A DNA stretch of 64,000 nt from Watersipora subatra (taxonomy: Eukaryota; Bryozoa; Gymnolaemata; Cheilostomatida; Watersiporidae): NCBI RefSeq assembly GCF_963576615.1, contig NC_088710.1:5622001-5686000 (forward strand), read 5' to 3'. A program made the translations under genes and the position numbers. Shown piece after piece: positions 1,004-53,771 of this stretch (position 1 is the first letter of the stretch; every line of letters begins with the position of its first letter). A model generated the notes under the pieces. That model made no database searches. It saw only the letters and a program-made list of their open reading frames with translations, and was not told the origin of the DNA.

Positions 1004-4000
1004 CTAGCCTTGCGAGAGCAGATCAATGCTACTCATTAAACTCCTTGATTGGCTGGAGAGCTTTGTGCCAGCTTCCACTGGCTCAGCAACTGGCTGCCTC
1101 GACAGGCCATCACCAAATCTAGAGTCAGCCAGATCTAAGTTGTTAGTAAGCTTGCGCAAGGCACTGTCACGCCGTGCAGCATTCTCATAAGGGAATGTGT
1201 TAGGTCTCACAGGGAGCTCCACTTCCATGTCGGTTGCATTCGCTAAATCATTCAAGGAAGAGCTGAGTCGATGATGCAGCATGGTGAAGGTCGAGTCGAA
1301 GACTGGTACGGATGCTGGTACAAAAATTGAATCAGCAGGCTGTGTCTGAACTCTCACTGCATCAGAATTGCGCTGCGAAGTGGCATGCTGAAGATTTTCT
1401 GAAACGTCGGACTGACTGCCGCGAGAGCTGGTTTTGGAAGTAGACTTGACAGCCTTTCTTTCAGGAGGGAGACTGAGGACTGCCAGTGCACTAGCGAAGT
1501 GACCATCAAAAGAAAGCCCAGTTTTCTTGCCTGGCTGATCTGTGTCGACGCTTGAAGCCTCGGAGTGGGAGACTGCTGAGTCCATTTCACCTCTTTTCAC
1601 TATAATGATGTAGCCGTAGAAAGGAACAAATGTGACTCAGTCGACTTAGCAATAGTAATAAAGCAAATATTCATGAAAAGTACCTTCTATGAGGAATGTT
1701 AACTATCATTGAACAAACCAGTACAATTTGAATCTTCTGACTTTCAAACAACGACAACTGTACAACTTATGACAAAACCGAAGAGTTTTAGCTTTAAAAC
1801 TATGACAGCAGTCCTTAAAAAGAACTTGTAAAAATTATTTTCAAATCTTGTAGAATTAATTAGACAGTAGCAAAGCCCAATAGAAAGAAATGAATAATAA
1901 GGGGTCTACAACTTATGACATTGATAAGTGCTTAAGACGCACGGCAACTTGAATTTTAGTGTAAGTCGGAAAATCATGCTTAAATTACTCTGCATCTACG
2001 GGAACGTACTTCACCGTGAAGAATAAAATAGAAATATATATATAATATAAAATTATAATATTAATATAAAGATAAAATATGAGAAAGGCCTAAAAAGTAT
2101 TGGAAGGAGAGAAAACGACTCCTTATCACATGAATTGAAAATAGATAATAAAAAAGTTATCAAATGTGTGAGAAAGAAAGAACCAAAATGGTTTATCAAC
2201 AAAACTGAGTGATGCCTCTTCCTCTCCCACAAACACATAATCTACATGCTGAGAACCAGTTCAAGAATGTTTATGTCGCTTATTGACAATAAGATGGAGC
2301 TACATAAAATATTATTTTAGATATTTGCATGGAGCGCATCCGCAACCTTGAAAAAGCCTAAGTAGGGAATGTCGTAAACTGACAACTCCCTGTAAAGAGA
2401 TTTGTTAAAACGAGCTGATACAAATGATGAATAACTCCCATAAAAAATAGCAGAAGCTGAGAATTGAACCCAGGGTATTTTCCTTAAATCTGTTTAGATG
2501 CTTGTCACATCATTGCTTTATTGCGACTTTCTGTACGGCATAAATAAAAAGTGGTAGAAATGTCTCTAGCAGTATAGCAAATGCGCTCTGTCGATTCACT
2601 TTGAAATTTACGCCACAACGAGGTCATCTGAAAGCAGTAATTAATTGAATGAAGACAACTAGGAGGTAGTTGACAGGCCAGCAACAGGTAACGCTGACAG
2701 ACAATGGGTAGCAACTGGGTTTAAGGTTAACTGACAGCAAGTTAAATTATACCTATTTATACCAATATAATTATATTTCTTTTTTAGCAATGATTTTGAT
2801 GTTACAAGAATAAAAACCAGTTTCGGAGACAAAAACATTAGCATTACTCTAAGCAAGCTGTAACTTGAGGCAGCCATTTTTTGAGAAAACACAGACTTAT
2901 CAGGTACGATGTCAACACCCAAGATTAGCCAAAAGGTGAATGCGAGAAAAAAGCACTTTTGTTGGCTGCCATTCTTAAAAATGCTTCCTATCCAGTTGTC
3001 AAGCTATGTTGTTTCGGTTACCCAATATGGCAGATGATAATAATACAAGGTCGAAGCAGATTTCACAAATGCAGAAAATTTTTTTGCCATATTTATATGT
3101 TGTGTTCAAACTTGCTAGTAATGATTCTAGAATTACAGGAACTAGCTTGTGTGGCTCATTGTGTAGAATGCACTAGCAAGAAATTCTTCTTTTACACCAA
3201 TAACAATTTTAAAAAATTGTTCCTGCAAATAAACTATTCTTGGAATTCATCTGTTTCAATCCTATCAGCGCATGCTCTGCTTTCAAGTACATATATAATG
3301 ATTTTGAATGGACAATTTTTAGATCTAGTTCAAAAAGTGGTCGAATGTCAATGTCAGTACAATGTCACAATTATACAGGGTCTGATACATATTTTTTAAA
3401 GATATAAAATTTTTCTGCCCATTTTCATGAATGAAAAATGCTGGTAAAACGTGATATTTGATTGTAATTACACAAAAATATTATCGAAACCTCAGTATGT
3501 GTTGTTATCTTCTGCTGCTAATGCAATAAACATTTGTGGTGTCAGTTAACCTTACAGATACGTAGCAGATATATAAATGTGTAGCAAAGTGTCGAACATA
3601 GAAAAAGAGAGTCAGCAATGTAGAAAAAAATTTAGTTGAAGAAAAACGGCTGTCTGTTGATTTCTAGCAAATTAGATTTACATAAAAAATGAAAGACAAG
3701 ACAAATGCCAGACATAAATAGAAAGAACAAACCCACCTTTGCTGTCAGCTCCTCTGACTTGACTTTTTCTCACATCTATCATGACGTCTGACACAGAGTT
3801 AGAATTGCTAGCAGTTAAATTAAGCTCGTTAGTAGTGCTTTCAGCGAGGCTGATGCAATCACTGGCAGTGAGGCTGACATGACCATGGGCAGCATCTTCT
3901 GGACTCTCTAAAGGAGCAGCTCTAAGCTCAACAATGACACAAGCTCAGCAAGTCTACAGGAAACCGGCTGGTGACTTCTGATATAGATAGAATTGTGTAT

Positions 4001-7000
4001 CTCATTAGCTTGGAAATCAACAGTCTGGTTTCCTATAGCGTGGTTAGTGAAAGCTTCAATTTTCAGCATAAAGCGGGGAGGGAGGATTGCAAGCGAGGTG
4101 AAAAGTAGGAAAATTCTTTAAGAGTAAAACAAGAGCCTGAGGCTATGAAAACACATGCACAAGGGGACGATATGAAACCACATGCTACACCCTATCACCA
4201 TCAGCATTACTTACTACTCTCTTGGTCTATATTATTTATCCATACAACAGTATAAAGTTTATGAGGAACATTCTGGAACAATAATGTTCAAGAGCAACTT
4301 GAATACTTAGCAGCCTTGTGATTAATATACATCTCAAGTGAAAGTACATTGAGATTGACTTATGTATAGTACAACACTAATGTTCTTCCTAGCAATACTG
4401 GGTCTGCTATACACTAGATTACATATATTTAACCAGGTCTTGTATTCTGGATGCCATATACTTAGAAAAGGTTTAAATGACAACCTGGCCTGATGAGCAC
4501 ACAATAAAATAACCAATTATAAAATCCACCCTTCAGCATTTAAAATATTTTTGAAAAAAAGTTGCAATAAATAATTTGCCTTAAAATTGAAGTAATTAGA
4601 AGGATTAAACTAAAACAACTCATGTACAGAGAGTTCCAACATCATGAATGTTGTAATGAGAATTTTAGTTTTCCAAAAAAGGGTCCAGTTTATTTCGCAC
4701 ACAGGTGTATGAGTGACCATTATAAAGTTTAATCATTGTTAGAGTAGATAAGAGTTGAACTTGGAGGTCAAAGGGTCAGCGACATTGCTATAAACAGTTT
4801 AGCCATACTCCTCCTAGTTGAGGAACTCTAACTATTCGATGTACCTCACACATTCAGCTGTGTGGCGATATTCATGTAGATTCACTTTTGGCAGCCCGGT
4901 TATATTATAACTACAGTATATGTAAAATTTGGCCATAAACATGTGAGTCTAGATGCCACTGCGTGCAGTATGTACTAACCTGAGTCTAATGAAACCTTAG
5001 ATACAGACTGCTGTTTGCTAAGTGTAGATGACCCATCAGCAATAGAAGCCAATGGTTTCTCCGCAGCAAGTGCTGACTCTCTCCAGCTGTTATATTCCAG
5101 ATCTTCATCTGCAATGTTTGACCATAAGCCAAATACTCAATGCCTCTTGCGATCAATGTGCCCTTTCTAACAACATTATCACCACTAAAGGTTGAATCAT
5201 GCTGTAAAATGGTATTTGAGTGGCAAGATGAGGCCTCTTAATGCTTAACTTTATATATAAATCTCAGATAAATCTCTCATTTGTCGTCTGTACATCCATT
5301 TACAGTAGATTTAGGAACGCAAAATCTGATTTGCATTGGATTTGAACTCAAAACCTACAACTCTGCAGACAGGCGTACTATCCATTACACTGTGCATCCA
5401 ACTGGCGATACTAATGAATAATTGTGCACTTATTTATTACACCGGTTAAAATATGCATGCTACAAGTGCTTGTGAAGATACTATTGGTTGCTAATATTGT
5501 GCTTGAAAATCATGATTGGGTGAGAGATCATGAAACGTAACAATAATAAGTACAATTACAAGCACAATCTGGCTTCAGACGAACGGACAGCTCTTGTTAT
5601 AGTAAAGATTTAGACTAGCTTAAATTACTCAAATATATTTGGTAATTATTTTATTACCCGCACAAGACTGGGAATTCATCTATTCTTGTATATACAAGCG
5701 TTACCCCTGGTTACCCCTGATCCGAGACAGTATTAACAACTTTCCAATTGCTGTGAAAACCCTTAAATAGTCAATTCCTTTTAAAATGAATATTCTTTAA
5801 AGCTAGCGGATTTGTTGGTCATTCGACTTGAAGCCTCAGAATTATGCTGAGAAGGTATTAAGCAGAAAACAACCAAAGATTTGTAATTCACCGAAAGTGA
5901 ATTACAAAATTTTCAGCAAGTTAACTGGAAGCGGGTGAAAATAAAGCGAAACTACACTGTCAAGTTTTCTAGGGTACAGGAACAGATGATAAAACATATC
6001 CTCAAATTATTTTGGGTCAGGGTTAAAAGTGTTTACACCAAGAGTTGCAATGAGTAGATGACTCCTAGTTTGCTCAGTAATTCTTATTCTCTCTGAATAG
6101 CCAACAAACTCGAGGGAAGCGTTCAATAGTTGACGAATTTTCCTTTAGAAGTTGGAGACATTTTTAGTGATTATAAAAATAATTTTAATGTTCGTTGCTT
6201 ATTTTGAAATAAATGTTACATAACAATAACCTTTACTATAATAAGATTGTGTTCGTCACTCTATTCGAAGTGAGGCTAAGAGGTTACGATGAAAGATCGC
6301 TTTGCCAAAGATCTGAACTTTCAATGTTCAGCTAAGCAGCTGACACTCTAACAACTGCGTCAATCAACTGCCTTCCAGGACTTTTTAATAATTGTGCAGA
6401 TGTAGATGTTACTATCAGTGCTTTATCGCACATATGAGGGTCTCTCACTAGACTGTCATGGTGCTAGTAGCAATAAAAGCAATAAATAATTCAGCAAAAA
6501 ATAATAGCCTTTGATAGAACGCAAATTAACAATTTCTGATACAAACAGCAGAAAAACATAGTAATCACCAAGCAGCTTAGTGATTGGCTGACAGCTGCAC
6601 AAACCAATTAGCATATCATTTGTCAACAAATAAAAAGTGTGTGACTTGACTGAAAGCCAAAGAATCTAGTAGGAGCAACTTAGCCGAATTTGACCATGAG
6701 AACACAACTACCTAACCAGCATGCTGCAAACTTTACAAGCATTCCGATTAAGCATGTAACAATATTTTATTGGCTGTTTATCTAATTTTCAAACCATACA
6801 TAGAGGTTACGTGGCCTGAATGTATTAAAGCTACGCAACTGCAAGTGATTCATTGTAACTGTACGCACCTGCAACAGTAGAAGGAGGGGCTTCATAATGA
6901 GCTGGCAGACTAGGTACGGATGGGATGTGCTCTCCTAGAGTCATTGGTTTAGAGATCTTCTGCTCGACCTTTGTGATTGGAGGGAGGATTTTATGCTTTG

Positions 7001-10000
7001 TGTCGAATGATGACCTTAAGGAACCAGCGGAACCCACTACAATGAATAACTCTTACTTATTGGTTACAGTCATAAGTTACAAGCTGTAGAATCGCAAAGT
7101 GAAAACTGCAACCTGATTTGATCTCTCCCTTATTTGGTGTATGTTTGTTTAAGTACATCATCATGGTGAGGCAGTTTTATGTCCGCATATCCAACACGTA
7201 AATGATGCAACAACTAAAGCTCATTGTGTCGTTGAACACTAGTAGAATGTAACAGTATCCAGATTTGACATAATGTTATAGAGGCTCCAATTTAGTACAA
7301 AATAGCCTCAGAACTGTGATAAACTAGTAGACAGTAAACATTATAAACATAGAAAGTGCTGTAAATTTATAAATCCCATGCTTTATGTAATACTAGTTTT
7401 ATTGGCCATGATCACTACTTGACTATTAATGTAGCCATGAGAAAATGACTCTGGCTGTCAGCAACTAGACGTGGTACACCGTGCTATCTCGGTAATGGCA
7501 GCGCTATGTGGCCACACGAAGGTTTAGTTTTTGACTAATTTAACAGGTACAAAAGCTAACTGAGTGTCAATATATATACCTTTTGTTTGGATATTGAGAG
7601 AGTCATTTGAAACCTACTTGTTCACCAAGGAGTTTGCTACTAAATATTTATCGAATGACCTTGACAGTTTATATTTACTAAAGGTTAACTGAAGACAGAA
7701 CATAGTATTGTGTTAACAATAGCAGACAACATTGCAGAAGTGGTTGCATAATATTTTTGTGTAATTTTTGAACCAAATGTCAGGTTTACCAACATTTTCA
7801 AGTCATGAAAATGTACAGAAAGATTCACTATCTTTGTAAAGTATCGACCAAAACAGTTGTATTACGATTGTTTGTTTTTAAACTGAATTATCTAATCTAA
7901 ATTCCTTGTTCATGAAATCAGAGGATGTGTTGATAGATTTTAAACAGGCAGCGTCAACAATAGCTAATTTTTACAGACAATTTTCCAAATTCCCAATTAG
8001 TGTAAAGGAGAATTTTTTGTCAGTACACTTGAGAGCTGATACGAACAATCTTATTGGTGTAATTCCATAACCGTAATTCTATAACGTGTAATTCTATTGC
8101 TCAAACATTAGCCTCACTACACAGACTTTTCAGCATTAGTAGAATTTGCTTCGACCTGTCATTATAATTATTCGCCATGTTGGGTAACTAAAATGATACT
8201 GTATGCTGTTATATGGGGAAAATCTATCAAAATGGTGACCAACAGAAATGCTTTTGTCTCTCGTTTAGACATTGGCTAATTGTCTGCAGACGACATCGTA
8301 ATTCATATATATATGTTTTGCCAACAAAAGGACATCCTTATGTCCCAGTTTAGAGCTTGCGTTGCGAGTGTTTTTGTCTTTAAAGCTTGTTTTTTTTTTG
8401 CAATAATAAAAGCATTGTTGAACAATGAAATATTGTGCTAACATCAATTAACCTTTAAGAAAACAATCTGAAATTCATGATGTATTATATAGGCCTACGC
8501 ATTAACTTTTAGATTGGTCTATTTTCCATGGAATGAAAATTGCAAAAAAACATCTGACTCACAAGAGCTGGTAGTAGTTGACACTTGAAGTCCAAAACCT
8601 TTCGTGCCACGAAATCCTTTTTTGTCCTTCTTCACTTTCTGTTCTTCAGAGATGAGCCCCTAGAACAAGGTTTACAGGAAGTTTATGGCATGATAACATG
8701 TTACCACAACTGAAAATGCGTAAGTAACTTCTTTTGGAGTACACGGTATCATGAGCTGACAATCTTCAAGTTACTGTATTCAGTTATTCACTTCAAGTAA
8801 ATTATTCAGTCACTCCAAGTTATTGTATGTGCTCAGTAGAAGGTCAAGGTTAAAAGTAGAAATTGTAGGTATTATTGAGCTACATATAGTCACATCTCAG
8901 AAAGGTTACCTGAGGGTCAAGGTTAAAGGTGGAAACTGTAGGTATTATTGAGCTGTCCAGAGCTGTCTGTATTGCATTCATCATATCAAACTCATACAAC
9001 TTGGCACTAGCTTTACGTTTCATCTCCTCATCTTCAAGGTGTTTGGATACCGTCTCTTGGTATTCCTGAGAAAAGTGTATAAACCTGATTGTGTACTGCT
9101 TATAGCATAAGTGTAATGGCAGCGTTATTATGTAACATTATATACTGATGCATTAGTTTTTGAGAAAAGACCATCATGCTGACTTCTTGGCGGCTACACC
9201 GGCTGCTTATGTTTTCATCATCGTAGTTATACAAAACTATAAGTTCGCATAACGCCTGTGTTAGTTGCTTATTGACCAATAGAGTTATCCTTTCACGGAT
9301 ATTTTGAACACACAATTTTTAAGATGTTTTGAACACAATGCTAATTATGGCAATAGCAAATCATAGTTGTCATAACTTTTTAAAATGCAAAACATTGACT
9401 CATTAAAAATATTAATGAGTGAAATGTGAGGAATGAAAAAGTGCTCCAAAAGAACACCAACCTATTTTACCTCGCGATGATACCTTTGAATGAATATGAC
9501 TAATACTGTAGGTGCTAGTGTCAATAACTGACATGTACAGCCAGTTATTCAAGGTGACTGATAACATTATATATATATAAATCTCAGTGTTTGTCATTTG
9601 TCATCCGGATGTCCAGCTATAGCAATAAATTTTTAGAACTAAAAACTTCACTTGGCACTGGGTTAGAATTTGGAACCTCTAGTTCTCCAGCCAGGCATTA
9701 AGCCCACTACACAGCCAATTGGTGCAAGTGATTTATAATTGTGAACATACTTATGCAGCGCTTGTGAAAATACTGGCAAAACTGATGTATGGCGTCATGA
9801 CGCATCGTAAAATTAAGCTGACTTCACATCTCTCATTATAGTAAATATTTAGACTAACTCTAGTTACTAACTTAGATAAATACAGAAAGTAAACAAATAA
9901 AAATTTAACTAAAATTTAAAAACTAAATTTAATATTTAATTAAATTAACTTTCATTTAAAATAAAATTTGAATAAGAATTAATTTTCATTTATATAAATT

Positions 10001-19277: not shown

Positions 19278-19340
19278 TACGCTAAACAACCAGATTTCCT
19301 TAAGAAGTGTACCATACTAAATTCAAATGAATCGTTCACT
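19278..19340 (-). other. 5' UTR part of KIAA2012-like coding exon 1, with upstream 3' splice site
   Basis: On the minus strand a strong acceptor (pyrimidine tract followed by TTTTTGCAG) lies just above 19340. This implies that the exon with the start codon begins at 19340 and that an untranslated first exon lies further upstream, towards 20 kb. Confidence 0.5.
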
Positions 19341-19459
19341 CTGCAAAAAGAGTAAATGTTAGTTTTGCAAATAAGATGAATGTGAATGGTAAAATTGAAG
19401 CAGATAACTTTATAAAAACACACGCATCTGGTTTTTCATGATTCATTAAGCATATCACA

Positions 19460-19620
19460 AAGGTTGCATTGAGATCTTGGTGTATTGAGAGCTTCAGTAT
19501 GAACTTCAATACAAAATAATTGCATCTGTTAATGTATTAAACAGAATCGTTTGTCACACTAAAATTGGCATACGCTCTGCACTGTCTCTACTGTGATTGT
19601 GAATAGTCTGGTATACAGCA
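19460..19620 (+). repeat. Dispersed repeat, copy 2
   Basis: Same block order as 10735-10890. It lies upstream of the KIAA2012-like coding exon 1, in its presumed 5' UTR intron. Confidence 0.5.
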
Positions 19621-20189
19621 CAGCAAACATAATTTGTACTAAAGCATTATACTTTAATTATCTTAATATTTGAAAGCATTTTAAAAACAATATTTTCCGC
19701 AAACTGCGATATGGACAAAAGTACTAAATATAATAAATTATACAAGTGAAAATACACGAAAGACACACATAAACTATGTAATCCTGAAACAAAATTTTAT
19801 CGTCCCACATGTTTACATATCTCCACTAACTCAGCGGGTAACTTATTCAATTGATAACAATGCATAGCTATCCAGCTTCTAGGTCGTATAACGCATTAAA
19901 ACATATAGATCTACTAAATCATGTAAACCCTATGAAATTAGGTATTGCGACACCATAACATTGCAACTATTGAGATGACAACAGTTGACAGCAATTTATT
20001 TTTTTAACAAATTAATGCAGGTAAGGAATTAAAAAAACGAAGCTATAAAAACGATACAAAGCACCTAAACGTAATGTACTTTTGAGAGATCACATGGAAC
20101 GTAGCTAAGTAACGTGACCACAAACTGAATTTCCACAGTTAAGAATTCGATGGAGAAGCATGTACGGAGAGTGAAGAGATCAAAAGCGG

Positions 20190-20310
20190 AAACTTTAATA
20201 CGCATGCGTGTGCTTCATATTTCCAAGTTACGAAGCGCTGAACAAAAGTTAACTGATGGCTATGTAGCTACACCAAATCTATAAAGAAAACGCTGTTTCT
20301 AAAGCGACAA
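20190..20310. promoter_or_regulatory. Candidate bidirectional promoter core between the KIAA2012-like gene and RPGRIP1L
   Basis: This is a relatively CpG-containing patch in an otherwise AT-rich spacer. It holds the palindrome ACGCATGCGT (20200-20209, NRF1-like) and GTTTCTAAAGCGAC (20295-20308), which fits the degenerate RFX X-box pattern RYYNYY-N1-3-RRNRAC. RFX sites are known to drive ciliary genes. The X-box pattern is loose enough to occur by chance, so the assignment is tentative. Confidence 0.3.
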
Positions 20311-20590
20311 GGTTTGGTTCAGCATAGAAAAATAATACCAAAGAATGAATAGTAAAAAATTTAGCAAAAACTCGATTAATTTTTTTTACAAGTTTCCTTA
20401 TTTTGTATTTATTATATAGCCTTCGCTTCATGCGATTCAACTCGCACAATTTGTTAGTTTTGCATGCAATTTAACTGGTCTGTAAGTCGTTATAATGCTA
20501 ATGTTCACTACAAGCATTGGACGAAATTGCTTTTTCGACACCTGCACTGTTCTGGTGGTCAATCAAAGATTGACTTTTATCACTAAAACC

Positions 20591-21131: not shown

Positions 21132-21146
21132 GCGACGAAAAGAACA
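21132..21146 (+). other. RPGRIP1L 5' UTR segment after a 3' splice site
   Basis: TTACAG ends at 21131 and is followed after 15 nt by the start codon in the context AACAATGG. A non-coding first exon is therefore expected upstream. Confidence 0.5.
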
Positions 21147-42100: not shown

Positions 42101-45100
42101 GTAACTCTGTTTATGCTTTAGAGGTATATTTTAAATGGATGCAAAAAAGTCTACAAATGCATGCCGATTGGCTGGAATCTTATGCAGTCTTGCTGTTTTT
42201 CATAGGTGTATGTGTTTGACGATACGGACCCAGAGTTGGCATCGTACCTTGGTTTAGCCAGAGTTCCTCTCCTAGCCTTAGCTCATGACAAGGCCATCAA
42301 AGGCACATTTGAGTTGCACCAGGTGGGCAAGTTCATGACCTCTTGCACAGTTTGTTCTCTTTTTTTATAAAATTATTTATCCATCAGTTGTCTGTCTGTC
42401 TGTCTGTTCTAGAATTTGCTAAGATGAGTATCCAGCTTAGCTAGTAATTTTTTATCTATACTCTATATTTCATTCCTTTTAGCCGGATGGAAAGGTGAAT
42501 GGTACACTTGATCTCTTCATCAAATGGCAGTACACTTACATGTCTCCTCCCGTAGGTACTCAGGTTAGAACTCAGGTAAGTTATCATCTAAGAGTATAAA
42601 TATTATTTTTTCCACAATTTAAAGTAGTGTTACCAATGCTGCCCAGTGAACTGGGTCTTAGTTGTATTGCAACACAAAGTCTGTCTCACAGGTAGTGCAC
42701 ACAACTCCTAAAGCCAAGGGGAGCAGCTTGGCAATGATGCCCGGAGAGAGTCTAGATTCGACAATAGAGAGAGAAGGTGTCTCAGTTCCTCCGGCTGCAC
42801 CTTTGCCAGCTGATTTTCATGATGACCTTCACCCCAGGAGTGCTGCTAGAGTGAGTCATCAGCAATATTGGCCAATAGCTGCCATATAGGAAATTATAGT
42901 TACATTATTAAATTTTATATTAATATGTTGTTCATAATGCCAACTTATGTAATTCATGTACAGCAATCTCTCACTACTTTGCAGTTCAACTTTCCCAGCT
43001 TCAGTACTTCGCGAGGTAAGAATATTCATAAAAAATTAAAAATCATTAATAAAAAAGTTTGAAAAATACTAAAATACATAAAATAAATAAATCTCTTTAA
43101 TACTCTTGTTTAGAGCAATTCCAATCATCACAGTTTGCTGTTTTTCTTTTACGTTTTGTAAAGTGCCAAGGTGCAAAATGCTCCATCATGCCTCTTAAAT
43201 GTTGTCGACCCTCAAAGAGGACAATGTTTACGACTAATGGAACAATGACTTTATGAGCTACGAGCATGTTAGCCTTTATTTTCCAGATTTTCAGTTTTGC
43301 GGGGCGCTGATCCCGATTAATAGCTAAAACAGGGCTACAATTACTGAATGTTTGTTGCATTTTGGTGTTTGATACTTAGCTACTTGATAAATGTCATTGG
43401 AACCATGTTTCTAGTCGTATTGCTACTGGTCAAGGACTAGGTTCTCAGATTGGCTGGTCATTCAATAGGAAAAAATTGTCATACACGACGTCTCACGTTT
43501 TATCAATTCCGCAAAGTTTCTGCTTGCATGATCTCTTACAGCTGAATATGTGACTGCAACAGTAAAAGTAGTGGAGAATTCGTAGAGTTTGTTTCGTGGT
43601 CGACATGAATGTAACACTGTTGTATATTACAACTTCTGTCCTATCTTAAGTAGGCAGTGTGGTAAGGTGTTGTTTTATTGTTGACTTCCGTTATAGACTC
43701 AGTCTCCGCCCACCGCCATGCGAGATTCTCCGCCCACTGTTATGAAAGATTCTTCTCCACCCAACGCAATGAGAAAGTCTCCGAAAGGGAAGAAACTAAA
43801 AACTGTAGAATTCAGTGAACAAGTTGTCATGGCTGAAACACCTGAGGGTTCCAAGAGCGGCAGCGGGGAGACCTCACCTTCCAATACCGCTTTTTCACAA
43901 CCGCAGGTTCTCTCTGTGCACGACAGCACCCCATCGACACCTCAGGATACATCTTCATACTCTGTAGCCTCTGCTCACACATCTTCGGCTGATGGTCAAG
44001 CGGCGCGAGTGCAGAGTGCCACACATCAGCAAGGTTAGTTATGGATATAGTCTACGGTCGACATGTATATTCGGTACAGCCGATGCTATATGGTAAACGT
44101 TTAGTTTCAAATGAAATAACCAGTACATTATCATAAAATAACATATTATCATTTTGCGTGAAAACTATGAAGCTTTGTGGATATATAAATCTATGGCTAG
44201 ATATAAAGGATTATTCTCTCTGATTATTATGACAAATAACCTACGTCAAGGTAACCAGATGGCAATCACCAATCTCAAGTCATAGTTCTATGCGACAGGT
44301 TGTATCCATATTGCGGCGGTAACGCTATCAACCATGTGTAAGAGTACTACTGTATTTTATTATATAAATCAAGACATCTGCCCTTTAGTCGTAAATCTCG
44401 GCTTATTTTGCTAGAGATATGATATTTATGAAAAATTTGAAATTCAACTTTGATGACACGTTGTATCTTTTTAATTGACTTTAAAATCGGAGATGAAGTT
44501 GTTAAATAATGTGGGCCGGAAGAATGCAGCAAACTTTATGCAGTAATAACCTTTATACAGTAATAACCTTTGTACAGTGGTAACCTTTATACAGTGGTAA
44601 CCTTTATACAGTAATAACCTGTATACAGTAATAACCTTTGTACAGTGGTAACCTTTATACAGTGGTAACCTTTATACAGTAATAACCTGTATACAGTAAT
44701 AACCTTTGTACAGTGGTAACCTTTATACAGTGGTAACCTGCATTAATACAGTAATAACCTTTATACAGTAATAACCTTTGTACAGTAATAACCTTTGTAC
44801 AGTGGTAACCTTTATACAGTAATAACCTTTATACAGTAATAACCTTTGTACAGTGGTAACCTTTATACAGTAATAACCTTAATACAGTAATAGTCTGTAT
44901 ACAGTAATAACTTTGTATACAGTAATAACCTTTGTACAGTAATAACCTTTGTACAGTAATAACCTTTGTACAGTGGTAACCTTTATACAGTAATAACCTT
45001 TATACATTAATAGTCTGTATACAGTAATAACTTTGTATACAGTAATAACCTTTGTACAGTAATGACCTTTGTACAGTGGTAACCTTTATACTGTAATAAC

Positions 45101-48100
45101 CTTTATACAGTAATAACCTTTATACATTAATAGTCTGTATACCGTAATAACTTTGTATACAGTAATAACCTTCGTACAGCGGTAACCGTTATACAGTAAT
45201 AACCTGTGTACAGTGGTAACCTTTATACAGTGGTAACCTTTATACAATATAGTAATCAAAAGATTAAGATCAAAAGCCATAAGACATGTGCTATGTGAGC
45301 GGAAAAGTGAGAAAGTGCGAGAGAGGCAGAGAAGGGTGGAAGGGGAGAGAAAGAGAGATAGAGAGAAATGGGAAGTGGGGGGAGAGAGAGGAAGAGATGG
45401 AGTAGGTGGAAGAGGAGGGAGGAGGGGGAGAGATACAGATACAGATCACACCTTTTTGGTATAAACAAAACCTTTTTGCCGTATGGGTTATGTGTATTTC
45501 ATCTCTTGCATGTGGCCAGTTAAAGCCAAATGGTTATGCTATGGATGTTTGCTTTATAGATAAGGCCTCTTCAAAGCACCAGGTAGCTACTGAGAAAAGA
45601 CAGACAGTTGCTGCAGAAGTACACCAACCACCTGCTGTCACTCCCCAGCCAATACCCAAACTTAAAGGTAGGTTCAGGAAGGTCCTTTGAATACACAGCA
45701 GCAATTATAGTTAACACTAGTCTTGACTGATAATGCTTGCCTTAACGTCACTAGACTCTGGTGAGCTTTCAGAAGACCAAACTGATCATGGAACGTCAAA
45801 AAATTCTGGAGTTTCCGGTAACTATGTTCGTTAGTCATTTTTTGTGTTTCGTTCATACGTCAATCTTCGTCACTCTCATAGACTTATTCTTTACTCGTGT
45901 CTCTTCTTTCACTCAAGTGTGGCAGTTCGCACACAAATCCATGATACTCTGAACAAGTCAATTTGAGAGGCTCGATAGCAAAATCTCTTTCCAAAAACTG
46001 ACATTTCAAGACTCAAAGTAAAAGCAGAAATAACATGCTATATTATAATAAAATATATATATATCACATTTTGTCTAGTGGCAGTAACATTATCTACTTT
46101 AAAATGTACATATATAGGCTATGGATGTTATTATACTGCACTATACTATTTATAGGTAACATAATTATATTATTGAGTTATTTATAGGTAATGTATTGAT
46201 CACATTATAGGTAAAGTATTACATTGTTGATAAGATAATTGTTAACACTGTTTATAGGTAATGTATAATATTTAATCGCTCTACACTCATGGTAATTTCT
46301 ATGTTGTTGAGGTGACGGCGCTTGTCTTTCATAGATGTAATTGTTATTCTACATACTTAATATATTACCTAAATTTGGTGTTATATAGGCATTGTTATGC
46401 ATCATACGCTGATGAGCTAAATGCTTTATAACAATCATAGTGATTCCAATTGAGTATATACGCTTATCATAGTACAGAATAGCACGAGTTACTACTACAT
46501 TGGTACATGGCTAGGACGAGTTACTACTACATTGGTACTTGGCTAGAATAAGTTACTACTACATTGGTACATGGCTAGGACGAGTTACTATTACATTGAT
46601 ACATGGCTAGAATAAGTTACTACTACATTGGTACATGGCTAGAATGAGTTACTACTACATTGGTACATGGCTAGGACTAGTTACTACTACATTGGTACAT
46701 GGCTAGGACTAGTTACTACTACATTGGTACATGGCTAGGACTAGTTACTACTACATTGGTACATGGCTAGGACTAGTTACTACTACATTGGTACATGGCT
46801 AGGACTAGTTACTACTACATTGGTACATGGCTAGGACTAGTTACTACTACATTGGTACATGGCTAGGACTAGTTACTACTACATTGGTACATGGCTAGGA
46901 CTAGTTACTACTACATTGGTACATGGCTAGGACTAGTTACTACTACATTGGTACATGGCTAGGACTAGTTACTACTACATTGGTACATGGCTAGGACTAG
47001 TTACTACTACATTGGTAAATGGCTAGGACGAGTTACTATTACATTGGTACATGGCTAGGACTAGTTACTATTACATTGGTACATGGCTAGGACTAGTTAC
47101 TACTACATTGGTACATGGCTAGGACTAGTTACTACTACATTGGTACATGGCTAGGACTAGTTACTACTACATTGGTACATGGCTAGGACTAGTTACTACT
47201 ACATTGGTACATGGCTAGGACTAGTTACTACTACATTGGTACATGGCTAGGACTAGTTACTACTACATTGGTACATGGCTAGGACTAGTTACTACTACAT
47301 TGGTACATGGCTAGGACTAGTTACTACTACATTGGTACATGGCTAGTTGTTGGGAATATACAATATTATTTACCATAACTATGCTTGTACTTCGATTCTT
47401 CAAACTTATTTTTTGAAAAGAGAATTGTTTTGAAGTCCTTTTTTATTTTTTGAAGCCCAGCTGTTCAACAAGTGCTTTACAATAATAACTGGCATTTCAC
47501 AAAAGAAAGTTGCTAATCTAATAACACAACTTGTATCTCTAATCTTTCTATTCTTAACTTCATCACTAGTCAATCTTCCCCTGTACAACCTGTTTTATTA
47601 GAACTACTTTTCCCTGTCCAATCTGTTTCATTAAAATTACCTTCCCCTGATCAACCTGTTTCATTAGAACTACTTTTCCTTGTCCAATCTGTTAAAACTA
47701 CCTTTTTCTGTCCAACCTGTTTTATTAGAACTATCTTTTCCTGTCCAACCTGTTTCATTAGAACTACATTTCCCTGTCCAACCTGCTTCGTTAGAACTAC
47801 CTTCCCCTGATCAACCTGTTTCATTAGAACTACTTTTCCTTGTCCAATCTGTTAGAACTACCTTTTCCTGTCCAACCTGTTTCATTAGAACTACATTTCC
47901 CTGACCAACCTGCTTCATTAGAACTACCTTCCCCTGATCAACCCATTTCATTAGAACTACTTTTCCTTGTCCAATCTGTTAGAACTACCTTTTCCTGTCC
48001 AACCTGTTTCATTAGAACTATATTTCCCTGTCCAACCTGCTTCATTAGAACTACCTTTCCCTGTCCAACCTGTTTCATTTGAACTACCCTACTAGTCAGT

Positions 48101-51100
48101 GTATTATAGTGATGCAAGTCCTACTAGTTGAAGCTGGTGTCTGATGATTATTTCTTCGTGTGCATTTGCTTGTCCATGGTGTTGTATACATACCACAATG
48201 CTGATTAGCTGATTAGTGCTAAACTTTCACCAATACAGACTAAATGACCTTTTGAGTTTGAAAACCATTAATAGCTGAAAAGCCCCTAGCCTAAGAGCTA
48301 ATCTACATGTATGTTAACGGCCGGCTGCGTGGTGAAATTTCAAATGTTCAAAATCATATTTACATTGGTCATTTTACCTTGGTCATTGACCTTCGCTACA
48401 ACCTTTTGACACGTATACTTTATTTAGTTACCAAGCCGTCAGTGGGCAGTGAAGATGGTGATGCAGCAAAGAGGGAGGAGGTCTTGAGTAGCACTGCCAG
48501 TGGTAATCAAGAGGCTGAGGACGAAGACACAGCGTTTGATTCATCCAGTAAGTTCTGATATGTTCTGATTTTAGGAGTAGCATCTCTATAGGTTTACCTG
48601 TTAGATGTTACCTGAGGATTACTGACAAGTAGGTTTACCTGTTAGATGTTACTAGAAAATTACTGACACATATAGGTTTACCTGTTAGATGTTACCAGAG
48701 GGTTACTGACACATGTAGGTTTACCTATTAGATGTTACCAGAGGGTTACTGACACATTTAGGTTTACTTGTTAGATGTACATTTTTGTAAAATTGTAGAT
48801 TTTATTAGAAATTATTGACATTTTTCTATCATTCTCCATTTTTTTGTGTGTTTGAGATCATTTGACAGCTATGATGTTTCCAGATTAAAATCGACAAGAC
48901 TTGATCACACTTGAAACATTCAGAAGACAAATACATGCGAAATGACTTCACGAATTGTTTTCATCGCAGTAGTTGATATAGACATTTGCTATCAAATTGA
49001 AGTGTTATGTGTCTCTATTGTCTGTCTCTGTGCAGTTATAGACATCACAATCATACATTCGCTTGATCTGAGCACTTCAAATGAGATGAAGTTTTATCGA
49101 TTATAAAACATCCTGTTGCAGTCAGATCACCTTAAACCTTAAATCTGAGTGTTTTCATCGCGATCAAGTTTTACCAATTTTATACGTGAAACATCTCGGC
49201 AATCAGATCACCTCAAACATCAAAAACAATTACAAATGATAAAAAAATACTGATCACTTCTAATAAAATGTACTAAAAATCTTGTGGAAGTTCACCTTTA
49301 GTTATTCCAAACATCTTTTAGCTGCCATCTCAATTCTGTCAATGAGATTTCTGATGAATCTATGAATGGTTTTACACTTTTAACTTCAAATGCAAATCAT
49401 CATTACATAGTGTCTATTAGCATAGTATGACTTTGGTGTTACATCTATTAGTAGTTTGACTAGTTGAGTCTCTTCACGCTTATATCTGTCTATAGTCACC
49501 GACATGGAAGAGGCAGATTCGCTCACCTTAAACCCTGAGTCGAGCACTCAAGGAGGTACGTACTTTGAAGAGTCTGATGCTGGGTCAGGCTCTCTAGATG
49601 AGGAAGTGGAAGAAGAGATTGAAGAGGAGGTGGTTGAAGAGGAAGGAACAGGAGAAATGAGTGGCAGCGATAGTGAAGGAATCATGATGCCACAGCAGCC
49701 AGACAAGCAAAGTCTGAATGCTTCAATGCAGGTGCTCTTGCTGACTCTACATTGAGTCTGTATTTCTGTCATGTTCAATCGTGCCTGTCCTCAAATGACT
49801 GTCCACCTTTTTGCAGAATTATGGTACAGCCACGCGTAACGATTTTATCATTGGTTCTGACTGAAATCACGGAATGAACGAAAAACACAGAATTGTTCGG
49901 CTGAAATTCACAGAATTGTCTGAGCCGTGTGTGCTCACCGAAATTGTCGACGCAACGCTTTTAATTGGCTAAACAAATTATTAGCAAGCACTATTCTAGC
50001 AGCTTTTGATAATTATATAGTCCAAGACACATAACGTGACACGCAAAAAATACTAAGCCGATTTGTCATAGTAAATACGATGCAACTGACTTAATTGCGC
50101 TAAGGAAGGCAACTCTTTTTATAACGGAACTTTTGTTACTAAAAAGAAATTAATATTATTAAAAAAGAAACAATTTGTAGCCATGTTGTCCAAACAATAA
50201 AGAACCAACAATAGCGCAATCAAGTTGGTTAAATCGTATTTACTATAGCAAATTGCGTCAGCATTTTTCTTGTGTGTTGTGCTACGTGTTTTGGACTATA
50301 TAATTATCAAAAGCTGCTAGAATCGTGCTTGCTAATAATTTGTTTAGCCAATAAAAAGTGTTTCGTCGACGATTTTGGTGTGCATGTACAGCTCCGACAA
50401 TTCTGTGAAATTCGGCCGAATAATTCTGTGTTTTTCGTTCATTCCGTGATTTCGGTCAGAAACAAAACGCTAAAATCGTTACGTGTGGCCATACCTTTAC
50501 GAGTCATGTTCAAGTCTTCCGTCGTTACAGTCGTTGTGTTTCCTACTTGTGATATTTCATAGCTTTTCTGGCTTGTTACCACAGCTTTTCAATGGTAGGT
50601 CTTGCTTAGCATTGACATCTTCCCTATGTTTGTGGCAGGAGACTTTGGGTCAGTCGGTAGTAATAGGAGCTGATAACTCCTCATCACCCATGGTAAACTG
50701 GTGGAGTTATCCCGATTGTAACCCGTAACCCTTGCCTAACTCTACCTTACAATTACCAGTTTGTCTCATTACTATGCCTTTGCACTAGATTCACACTTTT
50801 CGCACGATTCTCTGAAACAAATGTCTGTCTGCTATTGATGTGAGGCTGGCTTACTTTGTCAATCTCCATGTTTGATTTTCTCATAAGCTTATTCATAATC
50901 TTACAATTATTTATTTTTGAAATGCGTCCTTTTAAATCAATTTTACTCCCTTTGACACGAAGGCTTATGCGTGTCATCTGTAACGCATTGTCACTTTGAC
51001 ACCTCGCAGACGTAAGGACCTGTAAACTTATGATTGACAGCTTGGGGAGATTGTGGTTGTCGAAGTGTCGCACTTAACCATAAGAGAAGATGCCCAGCTT

Positions 51101-53771
51101 ATGTCAAACCCGGACATCAGGAGACTTTTTGTGGCATACAATTTTCTCGCCGTCAATCCCGCTGACCTGGAGACTCCTATTTCTTTGCCCAAACCAAAGA
51201 AGGCAGGACAACAACTCACATTTAACTTTAGAAAAGGTATTTCTATTTGTAAATGTTTTACAGATGTGTTCGGTCATGTATTAACTGTAGGAGTGCCTTT
51301 AGGGGCTATTATGTTGAGTCTATCTGCTTGTCAAGCATGCTTAACTTTTCACCTTCAATCCATTTTATTTTTATCAGTCATCTAATTTTAGAGCTTTTCA
51401 TATTGATTTGAAAAGAACCAATGAGCATCCATTCATATCTGTGCCATCGATCTGTAATTAGTCCCTGTATAAACCTTTGTAAATACCTGCGCAGTTTTCA
51501 CAAAGTTTAGCGCTAGCACAGGATTTCTTTAATCTTCAACTCAAATTGTTTCACAACAAAAATCCACGAAAGCGTTCATTGAGGACAATTGTCCTTAATG
51601 CATGCGGAAATGGATTCTTGAGTTTTTATTGGAGAGATCATGGCACATCTATACGTTACATGAGGGTTGTACGATTTCCAATTGATCCCGGCATTGCTTG
51701 AAGTGGACCTCTGAGAGGCCGAGACCTGTAAGTCACCTCTTATAACATTTTCTTCATAAGAGAAGGCAATTTCCTAACATCACCAAACATCACTCTAATT
51801 ATAATAAACTTATTCTTCAACTATGGAGTGAGGTCGCATGGATATGTTGTTCGTCTGCCTAACAGAAGGTTATGATTTCATGACCTGTAGATAGAATTAT
51901 TTTATCAAGCACCTTAATTACCATATATATCATTTCTTCAGTGCGACAGTTTCGAGATTACAATATGAGAGTTTCATTATGAGGTAGGTATAAAAACAAT
52001 TTGATCGTATTAACACTTTGCTGTTTTAATCCTAAGTTTTGCATCATTGGCATTTCTTTTAGTGTTCCATGTGGATACAGAGAGCAATTATGAGAGAAGA
52101 CAGTATCTGGCAAGCATGCTACTTCCCAACTCCCCTGACAATGGCGGGTCAGTACTTGTTTAATATTGACACTGGACTAGTGTTTAGTTTGGTTAAGTGA
52201 TTACATATCCTGGCCAGTTTGTGCTTACAGCTGTCTCACTGGCCTGACTTATAGAACCAGCATAGACATCTCATGCCAATATAATTTTAGTTTATTGTTT
52301 AGATAATCTATTTGCTGATCAAAAAGGCCCGTGGCAGTACTTCTCTCAATTCACAAATAGAATATGAATAGATACATCTATTGCTTGGGCTAATAATTGT
52401 TCCAATAGTTTTGCTGGTTAATTAACTAGAGTTGGAGGGCATAAGATCTGCCCTTTAATGAGGCCAAGGTTTGAATATGCTGCAGGCGCAAAAAGCCTGG
52501 TAAAATTATGTCTTGTCGCGACCACTCTATGAAACACAATAGGTTCATGACCACTCTATGAAACACAATAGATTTATGACCACTCTATGAAACAAATATA
52601 GATCACTCTATGAAATGGAATTGAAGCAAAAGATTTTTGGGGAACTTTGTGTCACGGCCTTCCAGCATATCTGCTTTTGTTTTAAAGCTTTCGACAAAAT
52701 GAGACTAGTCCCTTTTGTTTAATATTTATCTAATTCACCGTTTAAATATGGAATTTACTTGAGATCACGTTGAAATTTTGATGTACATGTAAATTGGTTT
52801 TTAATTTACAAGCAAATCTCTATTGATCAGTCCAGTAATGACAACGAAGTGTCACTATCAAGCACGGTTAGTGAAGATCAGCTCACCAGACCCATTACTC
52901 ATTTGTATCACACCTTCAGTTATTTGGGAGTTTTTCTCATATTCTTACAGCTTTTTTCAATATTCTCGTAGATGTAGTTTTTTTAAATTTTAGAATTGTG
53001 TTCAACCTTGTCTGTGAACCTCCTGAGGAGGATGATGATGCCGATTGCTTTGACATAGGCACTGCTTTTGTCTCACTCGTAGACGCTCTTAAAGCTAAGA
53101 AAGACATCACCGAGGCGAACATACCAAGTAAGTGTTACCTCTCAACGCTATATGGATCTCACTTTCCTCTCTCGTTCTCTTCCCCCTACCTCATTTCTTC
53201 TCTCTCTCCTTTCTTCTCTCCCTCTCTCTCTTTTAGCCTTTTCTCTTTTTCCTCCCTTTCCTTCCTCATCTCTCTCTTTCTCTCTCCGTCTCCGTTTATA
53301 AATAATTATTGCTGCTAAGTGTGCCTTATTTTGTCAAATGATGTAGAAACAAATTGTAGGTTTGACTTTTTGCTTCACTCCTAGTCATCATTCCTAGCTG
53401 TGATCATGTCAGATGTTAGCTCAAGGATACTAAACATTGCTGAAGATATAATCTCTAAAAGTTACCTACTGTTAATTCTGCGTGAAGTTAATGATACAGT
53501 TTTTAGCTTTAATGAGGTTCTGTAGGTTTAATGGGAAGGCTGCTTCATTTCTTCATCTATGATGTTTTATTGATTATCAGCTTCTGATGAGGAGTTACAT
53601 GTCTGTTACTTTCAATATCATAGCCTGTAATTGTTCACCAGCTCTCATCGCTGTTTTATAGTATTTGACATTGATGACGAGTCGACAGAGATCGGTACGC
53701 TGACTGTGTCAATTGAGTGTGTGGCAGCACTGCAGGCAGTTAAAGAAGAGCTGCCGAGTGACATCGCTTAG
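21147..53771 (+). CDS. RPGRIP1L: RPGRIP1L ortholog, ciliary transition-zone scaffold (33 coding exons, 1469 aa)
   Basis: Coding exons: 21147-21228, 22080-22224, 22424-22479, 23618-23820, 24614-24756, 27104-27176, 29380-29556, 30884-31104, 31539-31645, 32323-32462, 32785-32902, 34169-34287, 34846-35025, 35298-35367, 35942-36062, 37908-37977, 38492-38621, 38956-39074, 39680-39839, 41853-42016, 42206-42322, 42483-42575, 42692-42850, 43697-44033, 45560-45667, 45755-45817, 48428-48547, 49496-49731, 50639-50692, 51041-51236, 52063-52147, 52994-53127, 53662-53771. The phases chain to 4410 nt with one stop. Diagnostic blocks include [49 protein letters not shown] and VYKFFDF. Order: coiled coil (about 35-570), first C2 (about 600-758), second C2 (about 788-930), acidic Ser/Pro-rich linker (about 937-1295), C-terminal RPGR-interacting C2-like domain (about 1296-1469). 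The family anchors the NPHP-MKS module at the ciliary transition zone. Least certain are the small linker exons 26 and 29 and a possible extra N-terminal exon. The ATG follows a 3' splice site at 21131. Confidence 0.96.
21252..21395. repeat. 47-bp tandem repeat, 3 copies
   Basis: Unit starts TGTAGGAATCCCATATGACA and ends in TTATTAC-CCAGAC; nearly identical copies. It lies in RPGRIP1L intron 1, about 25 nt past the exon 1 donor. Confidence 0.85.
22672..22880 (+). mobile_element. tRNA-derived SINE-like element, family 2
   Basis: It shares TGATGCAG-AAGGTGG, CCGTGAGAGATC and ATCTTATTATAG-type blocks with 54540-54775. The core (GGTGGTAGCGCGCTTGTC, then GTGTTCAATTCACG) resembles a tRNA D-arm and T-arm (box A and box B). 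Confidence 0.6.
26270..26411. repeat. 28-bp minisatellite, 5 copies
   Basis: Unit ATCATGGGTATGAGTGCACT plus AGCATGAC, near-identical. In RPGRIP1L intron 5. Confidence 0.85.
27200..27362. repeat. 29-bp minisatellite, 5-6 copies
   Basis: Unit GGCAGCCAATCAGTCGCCTG plus CCTGGTCAT. It starts about 25 nt past the RPGRIP1L exon 6 donor (27177). Each unit contains a CCAAT box. The exon frame would read into it if the intron were retained. Confidence 0.8.
27690..27935. repeat. Direct copy of part of the palindrome right arm
   Basis: TTAATAGTATG/TTATTAGTATG units followed by GTATAGGTGTGTATATTCGT, as at 28450-28590. Confidence 0.7.
27940..28080. mobile_element. MITE family A, left-half relic
   Basis: TATCACTTGAGATTGGTTTG, GATGTTATTGCCAGGACG and AACTTGATCGTTGTTGAAAT match the left half of 12480-12765. 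The right half is missing and is replaced by the large palindrome. Confidence 0.55.
28085..28799. repeat. Large fold-back palindrome, arms about 355 bp
   Basis: Left arm 28085-28447, right arm 28448-28799, meeting at TTAACGTTAA with no spacer. Outer ends AGTTTTTAGGGTTTATATCC and its inverse. The arms are nearly identical apart from small length differences in the TTAATAGTATG repeats at the centre. In RPGRIP1L intron 6. Confidence 0.9.
28805..29090 (-). mobile_element. Family-1-related element, partial
   Basis: On the minus strand it starts with AAATGAATGCCCGGCATTGC and GGGTAGTAGAAAAGTC, followed by the same AT-rich module as 36512-36750. It ends in TATAGATATATAGATATA microsatellite. It directly abuts the right arm of the large palindrome. 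Confidence 0.5.
31690..31910. repeat. Degenerate GATA/GATAGATAGATGGATA microsatellite
   Basis: Irregular GATAGATAGATGGATAG stretches in RPGRIP1L intron 9. Open frames on the opposite strand here are low complexity only. Confidence 0.7.
33160..33295. repeat. Diverged tandem repeat rich in CTGCAGCTGCTGACAG
   Basis: About five units of GACAGATACCTGCAGCTGCT with variants; in RPGRIP1L intron 11. Confidence 0.65.
33432..33900 (+). mobile_element. SINE-like element, family 1
   Basis: Head TGAATGCCTGGCATTGC and AGTAATAAAG; middle with a tRNA-like stretch (GTAGTGAAATGGATAGAGTA, then GAGAGTACAAATCC); tail ACTTGACACATGAATGAAAG. It lies in RPGRIP1L intron 11. Confidence 0.6.
36104..36500 (+). mobile_element. 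SINE-like element, family 1
   Basis: Head AATGAATGCCGAACGTTGC followed by GGGTAATAAAAA; degenerate tRNA-like middle (TCGCCTAGTGATTTAGCACA); tail CTTAACACGCGAACCACTG. It lies in RPGRIP1L intron 15. Confidence 0.55.
36512..37480 (+). mobile_element. Second, longer family-1-related element or composite
   Basis: It opens with TGAATGCCTGGCGTTTCCC and GGGTAATAAAAGTCTTTGC, contains a duplicated AT-rich module (AAATAAATTAAGARA at about 36640 and 36743), and near its end carries a tRNA-like stretch (GTAGACCAATGGATTGC, GAGCTCAAATCC) and the CTTGACATACCGAACCAC tail. Several insertions may be merged here. Confidence 0.4.
38017..38167. repeat. 13-bp minisatellite, about 12 copies
   Basis: Unit ATCACCTCTATTG, almost perfect. 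It starts about 40 nt past the exon 16 donor (37978) of RPGRIP1L. Confidence 0.9.
39987..41062. mobile_element. TTAA-flanked TIR element, about 1.08 kb
   Basis: Ends AGATTGACTTGCAACAAAAT and (reverse complemented) AGGTTGACTTGCAACAAAAT, flanked on both sides by TTAA (39983-39986, 41063-41066). The arms extend about 200 bp and include GCAAAATATGTGGAA and its inverse. A direct duplication of about 90 bp sits in the left arm (40040-40110 and 40150-40220). An internal palindrome around CAATGACGATAGAGT is at 40668-40745. No transposase is seen. The TTAA target suggests a piggyBac-type mobiliser, though the TIR does not start with CCC. Confidence 0.7.
41131..41285. mobile_element. Truncated end of a Harbinger-like element
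   Basis: GGCCATACGCAACGAAT, AATTTCACAGAATTATTTGAG and AACGCTTTTAATTGGCT match the arm of the element at 49822-50496. No opposite arm was found nearby. Confidence 0.55.
44535..45252. repeat. 16-bp minisatellite, about 44 copies
   Basis: Unit TACAGTAATAACCTTT, alternating with TACAGTGGTAACCTTT, with higher-order order of the two variants. In RPGRIP1L intron 24. Confidence 0.9.
45296..45440. repeat. Polypurine tract
   Basis: About 145 nt almost entirely A and G (GAGAGAGAGGAAGAG-type) on the plus strand, 120 nt before RPGRIP1L exon 25. Confidence 0.85.
46488..47346. repeat. 32-bp minisatellite, about 27 copies
   Basis: Unit GGACTAGTTACTACTACATT plus GGTACATGGCTA. Central copies are identical; variants (GAATAAG, GAATGAG, GGACGAG) cluster at the 5' edge with one more near 47030. 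In RPGRIP1L intron 26. Confidence 0.95.
47570..48085. repeat. 33-bp-period minisatellite with long open frames
   Basis: Unit like CCTGTTTCATTAGAACTACT plus TTTCCCTGTCCAA. The period is near a multiple of three, so one frame stays open and reads as repeats of [10 protein letters not shown]. It lies in RPGRIP1L intron 26, outside the spliced frame. Confidence 0.85.
48591..48780. repeat. 44-bp tandem repeat, 4 copies
   Basis: Unit starts AGGTTTACCTGTTAGATGTT and ends GGTTACTGACACAT. It begins about 45 nt past the exon 27 donor of RPGRIP1L. Confidence 0.85.
48800..49275. mobile_element. MITE family A, longer copy
   Basis: Left TTTATTAGAAATTATTGACA and CTTGATCACACTTGAAACAT; right end is the inverse (GTGTTTTCATCGCGATCAAG, ATCACCTCAAACATC, CACTTCTAATAAA). 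It has the same inner pairing as 12480-12765. Confidence 0.55.
49822..50496. mobile_element. PIF/Harbinger-like MITE with TTA target duplication
   Basis: Ends GGTACAGCCACGCGTAACGA and (reverse complemented) GGTATGGCCACACGTAACGA. TTA lies at 49819-49821 and again at 50497-50499. The arms are about 250-300 bp long and highly similar. No coding capacity. It inserted in RPGRIP1L intron 28, close to exon 29 (50639). Confidence 0.8.
51041..53771 (+). other. RPGRIP1L: RPGRIP1L exons 30-33: C-terminal RPGR-interacting (C2-like) domain
   Basis: These exons encode residues about 1296-1469: [47 protein letters not shown] and [17 protein letters not shown]. They align with the recalled C-terminal domain of the family, which binds RPGR in the paralog RPGRIP1. 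The stop is TAG at 53769-53771. Confidence 0.9.
53158..53295. repeat. Polypyrimidine tract
   Basis: C/T-rich stretch (CTCTCTCTCCTTTCTTCTCT-type) starting about 30 nt past the exon 32 donor of RPGRIP1L. Confidence 0.85.

What the first reader, a model, noticed from the sequence alone, without database searches (positions are those of the whole stretch)
1004..53771. Head-to-head pairing of RPGRIP1L with a KIAA2012 ortholog
In vertebrates RPGRIP1L is divergent with FTO, and KIAA2012 lies on another chromosome. Here RPGRIP1L shares a 1.87-kb spacer with the KIAA2012-like gene, and both have a splice acceptor just upstream of the ATG. A shared promoter would suggest KIAA2012 works in the same programme (cilium or centrosome), which would be a functional lead for an uncharacterised human gene.
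Basis: partly seen in the sequence, partly recalled or inferred. Interest (0 to 1): 0.72.

Follow-up and report, generated by a model that had tools for sequence, protein, structure and literature searches.

The report
Two cilium genes back to back
In what is probably a bryozoan genome, the cilium gene RPGRIP1L lies back to back with a relative of the little-studied human gene KIAA2012, whose protein was recently seen in motile cilia; whether the two genes share a switch is not shown.

Summary
The observation largely holds. The + strand gene 21147-53771 is a complete RPGRIP1/RPGRIP1L-family gene (Pfam C2-C2_1 3.5e-57, RPGR1_C 1.7e-45). The - strand gene starting at 19277 is most likely a KIAA2012-family gene, but it does not end at 1004: that TAG lies behind a good GC donor, and coding exons run on about 36 kb past the window edge to a coiled coil matching Pfam DUF4670 (3.2e-12, above cut-off; 0 of 3 block shuffles match). 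The genes point away from a 1,869-bp spacer. Assembly size and chromosome 3 length point to the bryozoan Watersipora subatra. The guess that KIAA2012 is ciliary is borne out by others: human KIAA2012 was placed in motile cilia in December 2025 (PMC12772120). A shared promoter is not shown. The spacer has two near-matches to the RFX X-box (uncorrected P 0.05) and a CpG-rich stretch that 8.5% of local windows equal; coding gaps of about 2 kb on the outer sides make the spacing ordinary here. Conservation of the pair in other animals could not be tested.

The parts
155..19277 (-). KIAA2012-family gene, the part inside the window; 13 exons 19277-19176, 18643-18461, 17059-16871, 13860-13689, 12069-11896, 11365-11181, 9065-8910, 8659-8563, 7036-6869, 5108-4980, 3907-3737, 1599-1009, 283-155; continues to about -35591 (contig C3 about 5,586,410)
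   Evidence: exons 12069-11896, 1599-1009 and 283-155 were set by hand, and small low-scoring exons of the script's models were dropped
16871..19277 (-). exons 1-3, start of the conserved N-terminal region (LSLLSRG..., VYLPKTFTTRKGALLLFSED)
   Evidence: collinear blastp with recalled human KIAA2012, 96 bits over exons 1-5; tblastn on the raw window 1.9e-9 for exon 3
11896..13860 (-). exons 4-5, rest of the conserved N-terminal region (GFSAKRYL..., GYIKPQ...VSGIPLPYRIL)
19278..21146 (.). intergenic spacer between the two start codons, 1,869 bp
20101..20113 (+). X-box-like site GTAGCTAAGTAAC, one mismatch to GTNRCC-N-RGYAAC
   Evidence: two such sites in the spacer, 200 shuffles mean 0.36, P(>=2)=0.05, uncorrected
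20721..20734 (+). second X-box-like site, one mismatch
20573..20645 (.). dispersed hairpin repeat (19-nt arms 20590-20608 / 20619-20637) inside the spacer
   Evidence: 39 other places among 40 scored of 111 candidates
21132..21146 (+). 5' untranslated end of the first RPGRIP1L coding exon, behind a strong splice acceptor
21147..53771 (+). RPGRIP1/RPGRIP1L-family gene, complete coding region; 30 exons kept of the script's 38
35298..39074 (+). exons coding the first C2 domain (C2-C2_1, residues 594-733)
   Evidence: E 3.5e-57; exon-residue map
51041..53771 (+). exons coding the C-terminal RPGR1_C (RPGR-interacting) domain, residues 1206-1369
   Evidence: E 1.7e-45, PDB 4qam 1.7e-28

Best explanation
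This is a divergent pair of two cilium genes in an invertebrate, most likely the bryozoan Watersipora subatra. RPGRIP1L makes a scaffold protein of the ciliary transition zone; the KIAA2012-family gene makes a long protein with a conserved N-terminal region, a low-complexity middle and a C-terminal coiled coil, and its human relative sits in motile cilia. Shown: RPGRIP1L identity, DUF4670 match, orientation, 1,869-bp spacing. Inferred: that the N-terminal and DUF4670 parts are one gene; that both genes are switched on in ciliated cells by RFX/FOXJ1-type factors, with both promoters in the one spacer. Some co-regulation through the spacer is about as likely as not.
For: RPGRIP1L: Pfam C2-C2_1, RPGR1_C, C2, PDB fantom and RPGRIP1 chains. 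KIAA2012 family: DUF4670 47 bits against cut-off 27; a 275-residue piece 52.3 bits while 0 of 3 block-shuffled copies match anything to E 1; recalled human N-terminus collinear over exons 1-5, 96 bits, and on the raw window 50.1 and 33.5 bits against at most 25.8 for 40 shuffles. A published human peptide PQDKNNASQHSWSLFLPK (PMC10469356, passage) agrees with what I had recalled at 14 of 18 positions. Human KIAA2012 in motile cilia of five tissues (PMC12772120, passages). RFX2 binds Rpgrip1l in mouse testis (PMC4498915, passage). Spacer: two near X-boxes, P 0.05; CpG o/e up to 1.13, falling to 0.11-0.41 on the left and 0.17-0.20 just to the right.
Against: The 294-residue coiled coil alone scores 26.5 bits, just under the DUF4670 cut-off of 27. 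Four X-box patterns and one FOXJ1 pattern: strict none; loose 3 matches (two sites) against 2.41, P 0.42; vertebrate-like 2 against 0.65, P 0.18; half-site 2 against 1.10, P 0.30; FOXJ1-like 2 against 4.90; so the P of 0.05 is one of several tries. 8.5% of 1,828 overlapping 1,200-bp windows in 184 kb have an equal or higher CpG ratio; the spacer is one of 26 peaks at 0.9 or more. Coding gaps on the outer sides are about 2 kb too. Transcription starts unknown. Rpgrip1l is not among the transition-zone genes said to change in Rfx2-null testis, and Gm973 (recalled as the mouse KIAA2012) is not mentioned there. The two proteins belong to different cilium parts. No other species compared.
Confidence: 0.47

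Rival explanations
1. The two genes are chance neighbours in a locally compact stretch. Each has its own promoter in the 1.87-kb gap and nothing links their expression beyond both being cilium genes.
For: Neighbouring coding gaps are similar: about 2 kb from the KIAA2012 gene's stop to the next ankyrin-type frame, about 1.9 kb from RPGRIP1L's stop to the next - strand open frame, itself unproven as a gene. CpG and motif signals are weak. About 10% of eukaryotic genes are head-to-head within 1 kb (PMC4089025, abstract).
Against: A cilium gene beside a cilium gene is not the commonest chance outcome (inference); two near X-boxes in the spacer.
Confidence: 0.43
2. The - strand gene is not a KIAA2012 relative but another coiled-coil protein; the resemblance comes from composition and from biased recall.
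For: The part in the window alone matches no Pfam or PDB family; the human N-terminus used was recalled after the window frames had been seen; the coiled coil alone is just under the DUF4670 cut-off.
Against: DUF4670 is the only Pfam family listed for the extended protein up to E 1, above its cut-off, and is lost in 3 of 3 shuffles; RPGRIP1L's own coiled coils do not hit it; a published human peptide bears out the recalled text.
Confidence: 0.04
3. Two genes lie on the - strand: a short one ending at 1004 with the N-terminal region, and a second, further left, with DUF4670.
For: An in-frame TAG at 1006-1004; the join needs a GC donor, or one of two middling phase-1 GT donors further back (1416, score -0.6; 1113, score -0.4).
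Against: The GC donor is in the top 1.2% of GC sites; the join to exon 283-155 is in frame; coding exons continue on the same strand to the DUF4670 end; in human both regions are in one protein (recalled).
Confidence: 0.08

Closest known systems
Human RPGRIP1L-FTO divergent pair (16q12.2)
   Different: The partner here is a KIAA2012-family gene. That FTO is limited to vertebrates and marine algae is recalled; 11 papers hold FTO and the phrase 'vertebrates and marine algae' (listing only). FTO in this genome was not tested: the search did not complete.
Human KIAA2012 (Q0VF49)
   Same: DUF4670 coiled coil and, by recalled sequence, the N-terminal region.
   Different: The middle was not compared. 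In human the gene lies on another chromosome than RPGRIP1L (recalled: 2q33); a table lists KIAA2012 and CDK15 for one locus (PMC6425012, passage).
Head-to-head gene pairs with bidirectional promoters
   Same: Orientation.
   Different: Usual definition is under 1 kb between transcription starts (PMC4089025, abstract); here 1,869 bp between start codons, starts unknown.
TMEM138-TMEM216 cilium gene pair (recalled)
   Same: Two neighbouring cilium genes proposed to share regulation.
   Different: Head-to-tail and tested at the bench (recalled; one search looked for it and gave no paper about the pair itself); nothing tested here.

Membership tests
RPGRIP1/RPGRIP1L | RPGRIP1-type first C2 domain (C2-C2_1) | tested here: met
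   PF11618 3.5e-57, 192.8 bits, cut-off 29.2
RPGRIP1/RPGRIP1L | C-terminal RPGR-interacting domain | tested here: met
   PF18111 1.7e-45; PDB 4qam 1.7e-28
RPGRIP1/RPGRIP1L | N-terminal stretch like fantom (residues 40-93) | tested here: met
   PDB 7yfv, protein fantom, 2e-12
RPGRIP1/RPGRIP1L | RPGRIP1L rather than RPGRIP1 | not tested
   No tree with vertebrate copies; named RPGRIP1L by usage
KIAA2012 | DUF4670 region | tested here: met
   PF15709 3.2e-12, 47 bits, cut-off 27, 52.3 bits for the 275-residue piece, 26.5 for the coiled coil alone; that DUF4670 is KIAA2012's domain is recalled
KIAA2012 | Conserved N-terminal region | tested here: inconclusive
   blastp 96 bits, but against a recalled human sequence
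KIAA2012 | Reciprocal best hit with human | not testable with these tools
   No human proteome on hand
Bidirectional promoter | Transcription starts within about 1 kb | not testable with these tools
   No RNA data; start codons 1,869 bp apart
Bidirectional promoter | Shared regulatory signal (X-box, CpG) | tested here: inconclusive
Conserved gene pair | Same pair in other species | not testable with these tools
   No other animal genome held; scans of viral and prokaryote contigs with the first 335 residues of the KIAA2012 gene and of viral contigs with 390 residues of RPGRIP1L gave no relative

The most novel reading that the evidence does not exclude
KIAA2012-RPGRIP1L is an old bilaterian divergent cilium unit driven by one RFX-dependent promoter; vertebrates broke it up, moved KIAA2012 to another chromosome, and FTO took its place as RPGRIP1L's partner.
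Probability: 0.1. Interest if true: 0.6.

Novelty: new member of a known kind. Interest (0 to 1): 0.36.

Why it matters
KIAA2012 has no known function (rated FE5, the lowest evidence class, in PMC12772120, passages). A neighbourhood with a transition-zone gene, added to its published place in motile cilia, makes it a clearer candidate for work on motile-cilium disease and shows that the gene reaches back to a lophotrochozoan, where it can be studied in ciliated larvae and tentacles. If the pair proved old, it would also bear on how RPGRIP1L came to be beside FTO.

Tried and rejected
Pfam and PDB searches with only the in-window part of the KIAA2012 gene: no hit; the family match lies outside the window. 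Related loci in viral and prokaryote collections: none. Papers holding both RPGRIP1L and KIAA2012: 0; DUF4670: 0; RPGRIP1L + FTO + 'bidirectional promoter': 0; mouse name Gm973: 21 papers, 20 listed, listing only; KIAA2012: 28 papers, 26 listed, passages seen in five of them. CpG peak as proof of a promoter: rejected, since 8.5% of local windows equal it. X-box patterns: strict none, three looser forms not significant, one-mismatch P 0.05 uncorrected. The published peptide alone against the window: no meaningful hit. Genome-wide counts of DUF4670, C2-C2_1, FTO and the KIAA2012 protein: not completed. A first hand-joined model was off by one base in its last two exons; the mended set is open. 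My second notebook entry gives the hairpin repeat 45 or more copies; the recount is 39 other places.

Full report
What was checked. The window is animal DNA with introns. I built splice-aware gene models with a small script trained on clear RPGRIP1L exons. The one answered genome query placed the window at C3:5622001-5686000 of a 783,720,542-base assembly of 239 contigs. A genome note for the bryozoan Watersipora subatra gives 783.70 Mb, a 14.14-kb mitochondrion, 11 chromosomes, 240 scaffolds and a chromosome 3 of 75.93 Mb with 36.0% G+C (PMC12902671, passages); contig C3 is 75,923,518 bases. The fit is close though not exact (239 against 240 sequences, 75.92 against 75.93 Mb), so the species name is an inference.

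RPGRIP1L. The + strand gene runs from ATG 21147 to the stop at 53771. The script's model has 38 exons and 1,547 codons; I kept 30 exons and typed a protein of 1,375 residues. It matches Pfam C2-C2_1 (3.5e-57), RPGR1_C (1.7e-45) and C2 (4.3e-9), with two further families below their cut-offs, and PDB chains of human fantom (1.1e-38, 2e-12) and RPGRIP1 (1.7e-28), with a weak MCTP2 C2 match (0.0032). From recall, invertebrates have one such gene, co-orthologous to vertebrate RPGRIP1 and RPGRIP1L; I made no tree.

KIAA2012-family gene. The - strand gene begins at ATG 19277. Inside the window I count 13 exons, 815 codons without a stop. This part has no Pfam match up to E 1 and no PDB match up to E 10. 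With 60 kb of left flank the gene goes on: after exon 1599..1009 (GC-type donor CAAG|GCTAGT, top 1.2% of GC sites; phase-compatible GT donors at 1416 and 1113 score -0.6 and -0.4) come exon 283..155 with a normal donor and many more exons, ending in an exon with a stop at about window coordinate -35591. The two script models have 48 and 43 exons, of which I left out small low-scoring ones. The extension matches Pfam DUF4670 at 3.2e-12, 47 bits against a cut-off of 27, and no other family up to E 1; the coiled coil alone scores 26.5 bits, just under the cut-off. A 275-residue piece with the acidic stretch before the coil scores 52.3 bits, and 3 of 3 block-shuffled copies match nothing (five copies were made). 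That DUF4670 is the KIAA2012 domain is recalled. A recalled human KIAA2012 N-terminus aligns over exons 1-5 in order, 96 bits, 80 of 252 identical; against the raw window its best hits are 50.1 and 33.5 bits, while 40 shuffles reach at most 25.8. What I had recalled agrees at 14 of 18 positions with a human peptide printed in PMC10469356 (passage).

The spacer. It is 1,869 bp, 33% G+C. The acceptor 15 bp before the RPGRIP1L ATG is strong (top 1.5%); for the other gene the strong acceptor is 63 bp before the ATG, and the closer AG is ordinary. Both genes probably have a 5' untranslated exon in the spacer, so true start sites are unknown. The CpG ratio is 0.85 in the spacer against 0.54 and 0.51 in the two gene bodies, with a peak of 1.13, but 8.5% of 1,828 overlapping windows of 1,200 bp in the surrounding 184 kb do as well as the spacer's best. 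In one search the strict X-box is absent, and a loose form (3 against 2.41), a vertebrate-like form (2 against 0.65, P 0.18) and the half-site (2 against 1.10, P 0.30) are not significant; FOXJ1-like sites are fewer than expected (2 against 4.90). One-mismatch X-boxes are 2 against 0.36 in 200 shuffles, P 0.05, and against 0.55 from local density; this P is not corrected for the several patterns tried. In 184 kb there are five exact matches, none in the spacer; one lies at 22617 in the third intron of RPGRIP1L and one at 60232, about 1.2 kb before an ankyrin-type gene. A hairpin repeat with 39 other places among 40 scored candidates (of 111) sits in the spacer.

Meaning. Human KIAA2012 was placed in the cilium of motile ciliated cells across five tissues, in a cluster of motile-cilium proteins, with no known function (PMC12772120, passages; RPGRIP1L is not mentioned there). 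Rpgrip1l is listed among transition-zone genes bound by RFX2 in mouse testis, but not among those whose expression changes without Rfx2 (PMC4498915, passage). So both genes are cilium genes on independent grounds. In human, RPGRIP1L lies a few hundred bases from FTO in the opposite direction (PMC4671217, passage). Coding gaps of about 2 kb on both outer sides show that this stretch is compact, so the spacing alone says little. I hold shared regulation as about even, slightly lowered (0.50 to 0.47) after weighing the Rfx2 expression result, and an old conserved unit as possible but unlikely on present evidence. No paper in the library held both gene names.

Noticed in passing
window 61437-62003 (+); window-relative 66890-67441 (+) and -37561 to -38139 (-): Three related ankyrin-type frames (the other two 34% and 37% identical to the first) flank the pair on both sides, two to the right on + and one to the left on -, in mirror order.
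   Followed up: partly
window 20573-20645: Hairpin repeat inside the spacer; 39 other places among the 40 candidates scored of 111; probably a small mobile element.
   Followed up: partly
window 55676-56116 (-): Open frame rich in Gly/Ser/Lys with a hydrophobic end, perhaps a lipid-anchored secreted protein; no Pfam family above its cut-off.
   Followed up: partly
window-relative -53243 to -46302: Looks like an LTR-type mobile element whose two ends carry a tandem repeat that reads as a repeated peptide on both strands; the ends agree in the 160 residues listed. Not tested further.
   Followed up: no
window 22617 and 60232 (- strand reading): Exact X-box matches (GTAACCATAGCAAC, GTAACCATGGCAAC), one in the third intron of RPGRIP1L and one about 1.2 kb before an ankyrin-type gene.
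   Followed up: no
window 63215-63981; 46480-47346; 44534-45246: Long tandem arrays with periods of 15, 32 and 17 bases; the 15-base array has open frames on both strands.
   Followed up: no
window 1008-284 (-): Probable GC-AG intron in the KIAA2012-family gene.
   Followed up: partly
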